Origin: Methylacidiphilum caldifontis
GTDB taxonomy: Bacteria > Verrucomicrobiota > Verrucomicrobiia > Methylacidiphilales > CAMAQI01
Direction: 5' to 3'
Length of the DNA stretch: 41,076 nt
Assembly (NCBI GenBank): GCA_945877805.1
Contig: CAMCSM010000016.1
Location: 1 to 41,076 of the forward strand
Positions 1-41,076 of the stretch are shown piece by piece. The notes under the pieces are model-generated. The model worked only from the letters and a program-made list of their open reading frames with translations. It ran no database searches and had not been told where the DNA came from. Numbering within the stretch: the stretch's first letter is position 1; each line of letters starts with the position of its first letter. Both the position numbers and the translations under genes were made by a program.

Positions 1-339
1 AAAAATGCGGTTTTTTTGTCTTTCAAATAAACAGAGAATTGAATTTTCCTCCGTTAACCTCCGTTTACCCCGCGGTGAAAAAACTGTCTTTTCGTGTGTT
101 AGGTTGACGCCTATGCGCACATGCGGGATCGTTCCCGATAGATTCCTAATGCAAGAAATGGGATAAACAAAATGCAGCGCCCCGCTTTTCTCTTTAGTCA
201 GCTTCCCAACTAAATCTTGATTAGAAAAGAAATCTTGTATGTCAAATGTTCCATTGAAACTCGTGGAGACAAAGAGGGAGGATCGACTGATCGGCTTTAA
301 TGCGAATTTTATTTTGTGTTCTTTGCGTTCTCTTGCGGC

Positions 340-16648: not shown

Positions 16649-16690
16649 ACTCATCACGATTCTAAGGAGGGAAAAGAACTCTCTTAGGAA

Positions 16691-16945
16691 AAGGATCGTG
16701 AAACGATAAGGTAAAGCCGCTGGAAGCGAAAATAATTTTGGTACAGAGGGAATACCATTCGTGAAACGAAAAATAAGAAAACAGGGTCTGATTGTTTGGT
16801 GCGGGAGCAAAACCCAGAGGAGCTTTAGCGACGATAAATACAGTATATGGAATCTAACTTGTTTGGAATGGGGTAGCAGGGATTCAACCAAAACAAAGTT
16901 TTGTACGGGGCACAACCAAATCGAAGATTTGTATGGGGGTACAAC
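16691..16945. repeat. Mosaic mini-hairpin repeat block 1
   Basis: ATCGT-GAA-ACGAT (16695-16707), CGCT-GGA-AGCG (16718-16728), TTCGT-GAA-ACGAA (16758-16770), CAAAAC-AAA-GTTTTG (16889-16903), CAAATC-GAA-GATTTG (16917-16931). Reverse complement matches parts of 27350-27500. Confidence 0.8.
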
Positions 16946-17041
16946 TTAGCAGAAATGCAGGAAAAATACCGAATTCGCCGCAGGGTAACCCCGCACAGCG
17001 GTCGTATAAGCATGAACCTAAAGATAACAACCTAAACAAAT

Positions 17042-27000: not shown

Positions 27001-27252
27001 ATAGCCGGATAGCCGGATAGCTGAATAGCTTGATAGCCGACTTGTCCGCCAGAGTCCCGCAGTGCGGGACGACGGAGGATGCGTCGCCTGCCACGAGTTT
27101 TGTGTCGGGGCCGCGGGAAACACTCCCCTGTATTATAAACCTAGTGGCATGGTGATTGTCGAGAGGGGGTGCTAGCCCCCCAGACTCGACAATCACCATG
27201 CCACTAGGATAAATGAATTTAAGCTATCCGGCTATCCAGCTATCCAGCTATT
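27001..27252. repeat. Composite inverted-repeat element bounded by inverted ATAGCCGG-type tandem 8-mers
   Basis: Five ATAGC(C/T)xx 8-mers at 27001-27040, inverted counterparts at 27221-27252; inner palindromes at 27054-27070 and 27140-27208; related end at about 30044-30074. Confidence 0.8.
27140..27208. repeat. 24-bp perfect inverted repeat with inner hairpin
   Basis: CCTAGTGGCATGGTGATTGTCGAG (27140-27163) / CTCGACAATCACCATGCCACTAGG (27185-27208); loop holds GGGGG-TGCTAG-CCCCC. Confidence 0.95.
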
Positions 27253-27349: not shown

Positions 27350-27520
27350 CCTTTGCAAATCTTCGATTTGGTTGTGCCCCCATGTACCCCTGCACCAAAC
27401 GTTCGAGACCCTGTTTTACGTTTATTTGCTTCGCAATTGGTTTTCTGGTTGGTTGAATCCCTGTTACCCCAATTCAAACCTTTTAGATTCCATGGGTTTG
27501 ATTTCGTTTTACGAAGGTTT
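27350..27520. repeat. Mosaic mini-hairpin repeat block 2 (inverted relative to block 1)
   Basis: CAAATC-TTC-GATTTG (27356-27370), TTGC-TTC-GCAA (27426-27436), TTCGT-TTT-ACGAA (27503-27515); GGTTGAATCCCTGYTACCCC shared with block 1. Confidence 0.8.
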
Positions 27521-27698
27521 TCCCTAGGCTCTCCAAATGGTTTCCTATTTTTAATTGCGTTATCACGCAGGGAGTGGCGGTTAAACCCTATCCTTTCACG
27601 ATCCTTTTCCTTCGATCGATCGGTTTTTCTTCTCCCGAAAAGAACTATCTCATTTTTACCCTTGCGAAATCCTATAAATCTCGCAAAGTACTGACATT

Positions 27699-31180: not shown

Positions 31181-31334
31181 AAATGGTGGGGACTGTACAA
31201 TGGTCGATTATTTTTTATATCGAAGTCTTTCATTCCATTTCTGAGAATAAGGATAATCCCTATAAAGGAACTTAAAATAGCAAAATCCTATTATTTCAGT
31301 CACTATTCATGACTTCAAGTCCAGGTGGGAAATA

Positions 31335-31492
31335 ATCCCAGATCATGCAATAGGAATCGGTTTACCTCTCAAAAGATATTACCAAAATGGTGATAAAAAA
31401 TGGAGGGGCAGCCCCGACCTGTCGGGGCTGCCTTCCCCGCAGCCCGAGGCAGACGGCGTCTGCCCCTCCAGTTCTAATGCAAGATATGGGAT
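31335..31492. mobile_element. MITE-like non-coding element with terminal and subterminal inverted repeats
   Basis: TIR atcccagatcatgcaa / ttctaatgcaagatatgggat; inner TGGAGGGGCA / TGCCCCTCCA; internal hairpins 31377-31395, 31407-31432, 31448-31464; same architecture at 40862-41076. Confidence 0.7.
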
Positions 31493-31508
31493 AATCCCAT
31501 TTCTTGCA
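31478..31508. repeat. 15-bp near-perfect palindrome made of back-to-back element ends
   Basis: TGCAAGATATGGGAT-a-ATCCCATTTCTTGCA, one mismatch. Confidence 0.85.
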
Positions 31509-31654
31509 ATAGAGCCAAAACCCAAAAGCATTTCAAAATAGGGAAAGCAGGTCTTTAAAAAACCAAAAATTCAGATGTCTTTTTTCCTTTTTTTAAAAAC
31601 TTCTAATGCAAAAAAACTGCCTTTGAATTTCAGGAATCCATCAGCCCACGCTTA

Positions 31655-40794: not shown

Positions 40795-40861
40795 ACTAAT
40801 TATGGATTTGGATTTTCGACAGGGAAGCAGGAAATTTTTTATTTTCTCTAATATCCCTTTT

Positions 40862-41076
40862 AACCCATTTCTTGCATTGGGAATGGATATACCTCACAAA
40901 CGATATCACCAAAATGGTGATAAAAACTGGAGGGGCACAGGCTCTGTGCCTCATCGGACGGGGAAAAGGCTCGTAAAACGAGAAGATCTCTCCGCTGGAA
41001 GCGGAAATAATTTTGGTACGGAGGGAGGAGGGGGTACAACTGCAGCCCCGACCTGTCGGGGCTGCCCCTCCAGTTC
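40862..41076. mobile_element. Second copy of the MITE-like element, truncated by the window end and carrying extra hairpin modules
   Basis: aacccatttcttgcattgg left end; TATCACCA-AAA-TGGTGATA (40904-40922), GGCACAG-GCT-CTGTGCC (40934-40950), CTCGT-AAA-ACGAG (40970-40982), TCCGCT-GGA-AGCGGA (40991-41005), GCAGCCCCGAC-CT-GTCGGGGCTGC (41042-41065). Confidence 0.7.

What the first reader, a model, noticed from the sequence alone, without database searches (positions are those of the whole stretch)
31335..31492. MITE-like element with terminal inverted repeats and swappable internal hairpins; a second copy runs off the window end
Copy 1 is bounded by atcccagatcatgcaa and ttctaatgcaagatatgggat, with a subterminal TGGAGGGGCA/TGCCCCTCCA pair. 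Copy 2 (40862-41076) keeps the same order (left end, tttacctc-like, TATCACCA hairpin, TGGAGGGGCA ... TGCCCCTCCAGTTC) but carries different or extra hairpins inside, including modules found in block 1. No transposase is nearby, so mobilisation in trans is an inference. Testable prediction: the bases just after 41076 should read close to taatgcaagaaatggg.
Basis: partly seen in the sequence, partly recalled or inferred. Interest (0 to 1): 0.7.

Follow-up and report, generated by a model that had tools for sequence, protein, structure and literature searches.

The report
IS1380-type MITEs with exchangeable hairpins
The window carries two copies of a short "hitch-hiking" transposon that has spread to dozens of places in this bacterium, very probably moved by a transposase encoded elsewhere, and whose inner part is an interchangeable pair of DNA hairpins shared with a second, differently-ended family of hitch-hikers.

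Summary
Copy 1 is a 154-bp element (31337-31490) flanked by the 5-bp duplication ATAAT. Of 35 elements with both ends in this genome, 24 have identical 5-bp A/T-rich flanks; none match at 3, 4 or 6-9 bp. A copy 99% identical to copy 1 has clean empty sites, with a single TTAAA, in both other held genomes of the genus. So it is a genuine, recently active MITE. Its likely mobiliser is an IS1380-family transposase: a sister genome carries a 1514-bp IS with matching ends (right end 19/19) and a 5-bp duplication. That gene was not found in this genome's draft assembly. Between the ends sits a cassette of two inverted GGAG-headed hairpins. Their stems change but stay paired, and the cassette is shared with a second MITE family; between-family chimeras exist, one with a perfect duplication. 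The cassette resembles a REPIN, but no RAYT link was found. Recombination between copies is the best-supported way the hairpins are exchanged. Overall: a new variant of a known kind.

The parts
31332..31336 (.). Copy 1, left target-site duplication ATAAT
   Evidence: Sequence; 5-bp duplications in 24 of 35 own-genome elements
31337..31490 (+). MITE copy 1 (154 bp), IS1380-type, family 1
   Evidence: Ends CCC...GGG, 5-bp TSD, 60 matches listed genome-wide; empty site for a 99% identical copy
31337..31401 (+). Long left end (CCCAGATCATGCAATAGGAATCGG...), resembles the left end of the IS1380 element in sister genome G001
   Evidence: Alignment score 56 against a shuffled maximum of 49
31377..31395 (+). 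Palindrome TATTACCAAAATGGTGATA, counterpart of the palindrome over the transposase start codon in the IS (TTCACCAATATGGTGAGTCC)
31402..31469 (+). Exchangeable cassette of two inverted GGAG-headed hairpins (68 nt)
   Evidence: folds better than shuffles, z -4.0 as DNA
31407..31432 (+). Cassette hairpin 1 (GGCAGCCCCGAC / GTCGGGGCTGCC)
31448..31464 (+). Cassette hairpin 2 (GGCAGACGGCGTCTGCC)
31470..31490 (+). Short right end AGTTCTAATGCAAGATATGGG (inverted repeat)
   Evidence: Matches the IS1380 right end TTCTAATGCAAGAAATGGG except one base
31491..31495 (.). Copy 1, right target-site duplication ATAAT
31496..31512 (+). Older relic end CCCATTTCTTGCAATAG; copy 1 landed directly beside it
40859..40863 (.). 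Copy 2, left flank TTTAA (presumed target duplication)
40864..41076 (+). MITE copy 2, family 1, medium-length cassette, truncated by the contig end
   Evidence: nearly the same interior in C65 (228 bp, TSD TTAAA)
40929..41071 (+). Cassette of copy 2 (143 nt) with extra internal short hairpins
148..162 (-). Terminal 15-mer of a third element or relic at the left contig end

Best explanation
The elements are MITEs derived from IS1380-family insertion sequences. They keep the IS left end up to the palindrome over the transposase start codon, plus the short right end; the transposase gene is replaced by a cassette of two inverted, GGAG-headed hairpins. An IS1380 transposase acting in trans cuts at the CCC...GGG ends and inserts at A/T-rich pentamers (roughly WTWAW), giving a 5-bp duplication. 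SHOWN: ends, 5-bp duplications, an empty site in two sister genomes, an IS1380 element with matching ends in a sister genome, a shared cassette in two MITE families, chimeric elements, covarying stems. INFERRED: that this IS1380 type is the actual mobiliser; that hairpins are exchanged by homologous recombination between the dozens of copies through the constant GGAGGGGCA/TGCCCCTCC and loop sequences; and that hybrid hairpins are restored to perfect palindromes by template-switch correction or by selection.
For: 24 of 35 complete own-genome elements have identical 5-bp flanks (shuffled pairing mean 4.7, maximum 13 in 10,000) and none at 3, 4 or 6-9 bp. Clean empty site: C22:14170-14323 against G002 (L195) and G001 (L196), a single TTAAA with flanks joined exactly. 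The IS in G001:C30 is 1514 bp with TSD ATTAA and right end TTCTAATGCAAGAAATGGG identical to the common MITE end; its 438-aa transposase matches NF033539 IS1380 at 244.8 bits (cut-off 180). Further IS copies end G001 contigs C8, C52 and C53. Second MITE family with the same cassette: six elements with perfect TSDs; chimeras L191, L038/L061 and L093, the last with TSD TTCAA. Hairpin arms: 91.7% of cells paired against 67.4% shuffled, covariation 0.597 against 0.194, slid controls far lower. Hybrid half-hairpins (AGTG/CTGT) occur.
Against: No IS1380 transposase was found in the window's own genome (PF13701; protein search), although the assembly also lacks other multi-copy bodies: group II intron ends are present but no maturase domain. 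The IS left end matches the MITE left end only moderately. Eleven of 35 elements lack a perfect TSD. Only one of six loci gave a clean empty site. Recombination and palindrome correction are inferred from products only.
Confidence: 0.88

Rival explanations
1. The cassette is itself a REPIN (two REP hairpins in inverted orientation) mobilised by a RAYT tyrosine transposase, and it has invaded two MITE families: a two-layer, nested non-autonomous system.
For: The cassette has REPIN architecture: two inverted tagged hairpins folding into one long hairpin (REPIN description in PMC3116915). RAYT-type Y1_Tnp genes exist in all three genomes, and one in this genome (C20) is flanked by GGGAGGGACGACTTCCACGTCGTCCC hairpins, also GGAG-headed. 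One cassette-like pair stands alone at C83:2465-2512.
Against: Nearly all cassettes lie inside MITEs; only one free pair was seen. No RAYT gene is flanked by cassette-type hairpins, apart from a MITE remnant lying next to a RAYT fragment at G001:C49. The C20 RAYT hairpin has only 4 places in the genome. The usual RAYT tag is GTAG (PMC2817692).
Confidence: 0.17
2. The repeats are host regulatory or terminator structures kept by selection, not mobile elements.
For: Strong hairpins with a T-run on one side. A group II intron uses the hairpin foot before the T-run as its insertion site, as class C introns use terminators (general knowledge).
Against: 5-bp duplications and a clean empty site in two species show insertion; the matching IS1380 element explains the ends.
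Confidence: 0.03
3. Another transposase family that also gives 5-bp duplications (for example Tn3-type, as for the TIME elements) mobilises them.
For: 5-bp duplications are shared with Tn3-family TIMEs (PMC4133298).
Against: The ends are 15-19 bp, not about 38 bp as in TIMEs, and they match an IS1380 element in a sister genome.
Confidence: 0.05

Closest known systems
IS1380-family insertion sequences (NF033539; PF13701 DDE_Tnp_1_4)
   Same: Inverted ends starting CCC, 5-bp A/T-rich duplication; the matching IS in the sister genome encodes an IS1380 transposase
   Different: The MITE has no transposase gene; a hairpin cassette sits in its place
Bacterial MITEs in general (Correia/NEMIS, RUP, ERIC, Nezha)
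   Same: Short, non-coding, many copies, inverted ends, target duplication, moved in trans
   Different: IS1380-derived, with an exchangeable hairpin cassette shared by two families with different ends. Six held papers mention both IS1380 and MITEs; I opened only one, so a described IS1380-derived MITE is not excluded
REPINs / BIMEs (REP doublets) with RAYT transposases (PMC3116915, PMC2817692)
   Same: Two inverted tagged hairpins with variable stems, folding into one long hairpin
   Different: Tag GGAG instead of GTAG; carried inside MITEs; no RAYT gene flanked by the same hairpins
TIMEs, mosaic Tn3-derived miniature elements (PMC4133298)
   Same: Mosaic non-autonomous elements with 5-bp duplications
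   Different: Tn3-type 38-bp ends; no exchangeable hairpin cassette reported in the passages read

Membership tests
MITE | Terminal inverted repeats on a short non-coding element | tested here: met
   15-19 bp ends, 112-329 bp elements, no transposase gene
MITE | Target-site duplication of fixed length | tested here: met
   5 bp in 24/35, none at 3, 4, 6-9 bp
MITE | Insertion polymorphism (empty site) | tested here: met
   C22:14170-14323 against G001 and G002; one of six loci tested gave a clean empty site, the others had rearranged or diverged intergenic DNA
MITE | Autonomous partner with the same ends in the same genome (usual, not strictly required) | tested here: inconclusive
   Partner found in sister genome G001, remnant in G002, none detected in the draft G000, whose assembly loses multi-copy bodies
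IS1380-derived element | Ends match those of an IS encoding an IS1380 transposase | tested here: met
   Right end 19/19, left end similar, TSD 5 bp on both
IS1380-derived element | IS1380 transposase moves it | not testable with these tools
   Needs a transposition or binding assay
REPIN / REP | Two inverted tagged hairpins | tested here: met
   GGAG-hairpin ... hairpin-CTCC; covarying stems
REPIN / REP | GTAG tag | tested here: not met
   Tag is GGAG in all 18 distinct arms aligned
REPIN / REP | RAYT gene flanked by the same hairpins | tested here: not met
   RAYT loci of three genomes inspected; the C20 RAYT has a different hairpin
REPIN / REP | Dispersed as a free unit | tested here: not met
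   One free pair (C83) among the TGGAGGGGCA places inspected; about 40 of the 139 places were not listed by the tool

The most novel reading that the evidence does not exclude
A two-layer parasite: an independently mobile REPIN-like hairpin cassette has become the standard payload of two separately ended IS1380 MITE families and is replaced lineage by lineage (GGAGGGGCA type in this genome, GGAGCGCCG type in the sister genome), possibly because the hairpins help the element to spread.
Probability: 0.2. Interest if true: 0.7.

Novelty: new variant of a known kind. Interest (0 to 1): 0.5.

Why it matters
It gives a clear natural case of modular MITE evolution: constant transposase-recognised ends around an exchangeable pair of hairpins whose stems keep changing but stay paired. 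Because copies, chimeras, an empty site and the likely mobiliser are all in hand within one genus, it makes testable how non-coding hairpins in bacterial repeats arise, swap and are kept perfect, and whether they help the element or are merely tolerated. It also suggests that REP-like hairpin pairs can travel on a DDE-type transposon rather than through a RAYT.

Tried and rejected
Autonomous element between the outward ends at C9:37892-40559: rejected, host genes between two separate MITEs. RAYT origin of the cassette: looked for cassette hairpins at the RAYT loci of three genomes; not found. Empty sites at five further loci: L134, L005, L146, L057 and L003 gave orthologous genes but rearranged or diverged intergenic DNA, so only L002 is claimed. 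Rfam at gathering threshold on the window found nothing. No paper found linking Methylacidiphilales or Verrucomicrobia with MITEs by the terms tried in the held library. Assigning the true right neighbour of the window contig by matching TSD TTTAA failed: C18 and C108 overlap fully but are followed by TTAAT and GTTAA.

Full report
OBSERVATION. Copy 1 reads CCCAGATCATGCAATAGG...TTCTAATGCAAGATATGGG at 31337-31490, with ATAAT on both sides. Copy 2 begins at 40864 after TTTAA and is cut by the contig end at 41076. The window is the whole contig C16 of a 2.94-Mb draft genome in 169 contigs. Searching the genome with copy 1 listed 60 matches; the terminal 15-mer occurs 257 times with up to 3 mismatches against 84 for the reversed control, and TGGAGGGGCA 139 times against 4, which at two per cassette means several dozen copies. 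The prediction for the bases beyond 41076 is met by contigs C18 and C108, which share 133 nt with the window end and continue TAATGCAAGAAATGGG. Which contig is the true neighbour is not resolved.

IT INSERTS. Among 35 own-genome elements with both ends in the fetched loci, 24 have identical 5-bp flanks; shuffling the pairings gives a mean of 4.7 and a maximum of 13 in 10,000; no element matches at 3, 4 or 6-9 bp. Targets are A/T-rich (TTAAA, TTTAA, ATAAT, ATAAA, TTTAT). The copy at C22:14170-14323, 99% identical to copy 1, has a clean empty site in both other held genomes of the genus, G002 and G001: the flanks join with a single TTAAA.

THE LIKELY MOBILISER. G001 carries a 1514-bp insertion sequence at C30 with TSD ATTAA. 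Its right end TTCTAATGCAAGAAATGGG is identical to the common MITE right end, and its left end CCCAATTCATGCAATAG is close to that of copy 1. Its 438-aa transposase is IS1380 family (NF033539, 244.8 bits, cut-off 180; PF13701). The start codon lies in the palindrome TTCACCAATATGGTGAGTCC, whose counterpart ATCACCAAAATGGTGAT is kept in the MITE. G001 has further copies at contig ends and G002 a broken remnant; none was detected in G000. Absence from a draft is weak evidence: the same assembly holds group II intron ends but no maturase domain.

THE CASSETTE. Between a 65-nt left end and a 21-nt right end sits GGAG-hairpin ... hairpin-CTCC, in short (about 59-68 nt), medium (about 143) and long (about 230-245) forms. 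Hairpin types in this genome include ACAG/CTGT, AGTG/CACT, AGAC/GTCT, a long AGCCCCGAC type and two ACCTCCG types, in many combinations. Over 18 distinct 22-nt arms from two genomes, 91.7% of stem cells pair against 67.4% in shuffles, with covariation 0.597 against 0.194 and far lower values for slid structures; relatedness of the copies weakens the shuffle control, the slid control less so. Hybrid arms with half of one type and half of another exist. G001 has the same architecture with a different head, GGAGCGCCG; TGGAGCGCCG is at 98 places there against 0 for its control.

TWO MITE FAMILIES SHARE IT. A second family with ends CCTAAATTCGGCAGTTGAAG...AACTGCCGAATTTAGG carries the same cassette and also has 5-bp duplications (L175, L178, L181, L184, L189, L107). 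Chimeras of the two families exist (L191, L038/L061, L093), and L093 has a perfect duplication TTCAA, so an element with one end of each family probably moved as a unit. A second IS1380 element in G001 (C118) has ends resembling family 2; that link is tentative because the contig cuts its flank.

HOW IT LIKELY WORKS. An IS1380 transposase acting in trans moves DNA lying between suitable ends. With dozens of copies per genome, homologous recombination through the constant heads and loops exchanges hairpins, spacers and even ends. That stems remain near-perfect after exchange implies correction by template switching or selection; this last step is inference. The REPIN reading is attractive in form, but its RAYT association, GTAG tag and free dispersal were tested and not met.

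DISTRIBUTION. The element was found in all three held genomes of the genus and in none of 57 further genomes of the order. The exact 19-nt end occurs in the records of only two genomes of the 84,980-species collection, titled Akkermansia muciniphila MoH-23oct19-121 and Methylacidiphilum sp. Phi MaE-09apr19-199. Contig number, size and position identify the second as G002 and suggest that the first is G001, whose title is then probably wrong. Records near the window's own genome may be left out of that scan.

VERDICT. Real, mobile and of a known general kind, with an unusual exchangeable hairpin payload shared between two families.

Noticed in passing
L092, L085, L076, L012/L192 (G000 contigs C117, C33, C38, C118): Group II intron ends (RF00029, 40.0 bits in L092, equal to the gathering score) are inserted at one site in the cassette, between TGCCCCTC and CATTTTTT, in both MITE families. 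The hairpin foot before the T-run thus serves as an intron target, as expected of class C introns; the class was not established.
   Followed up: partly
window 16690-16960 and 27350-27620: Older intergenic arrays of short hairpins (CATTCGTGAAACG, CGCTGGAAGCG, AAATCGAAGATTTG) that share modules with the long cassettes, without MITE ends.
   Followed up: partly
window 27141-27209: A large near-perfect inverted repeat (cctagtggcatggtgattgtcgag ... ctcgacaatcaccatgccactagg), a further palindromic element.
   Followed up: no
L063 (G000 C20:4800-8300): A Y1_Tnp (RAYT-type) gene lies between ABC-transporter-like genes and is flanked by GGGAGGGACGACTTCCACGTCGTCCC-type hairpins; only 4 such hairpins in the genome.
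   Followed up: partly
L147 (G002) and L145 (G001); window 1-162: Elements with the same outer ends but another interior (ATCGGGAGCGATC..., GCGTCAAC-containing repeats), suggesting further cargo types under the same ends.
   Followed up: no
L215-L219 (CAMCYL01 records): Records titled Akkermansia muciniphila appear to be the genome that the kinship table puts in the same genus as a Methylacidiphilum-titled MAG; the title is probably wrong.
   Followed up: no
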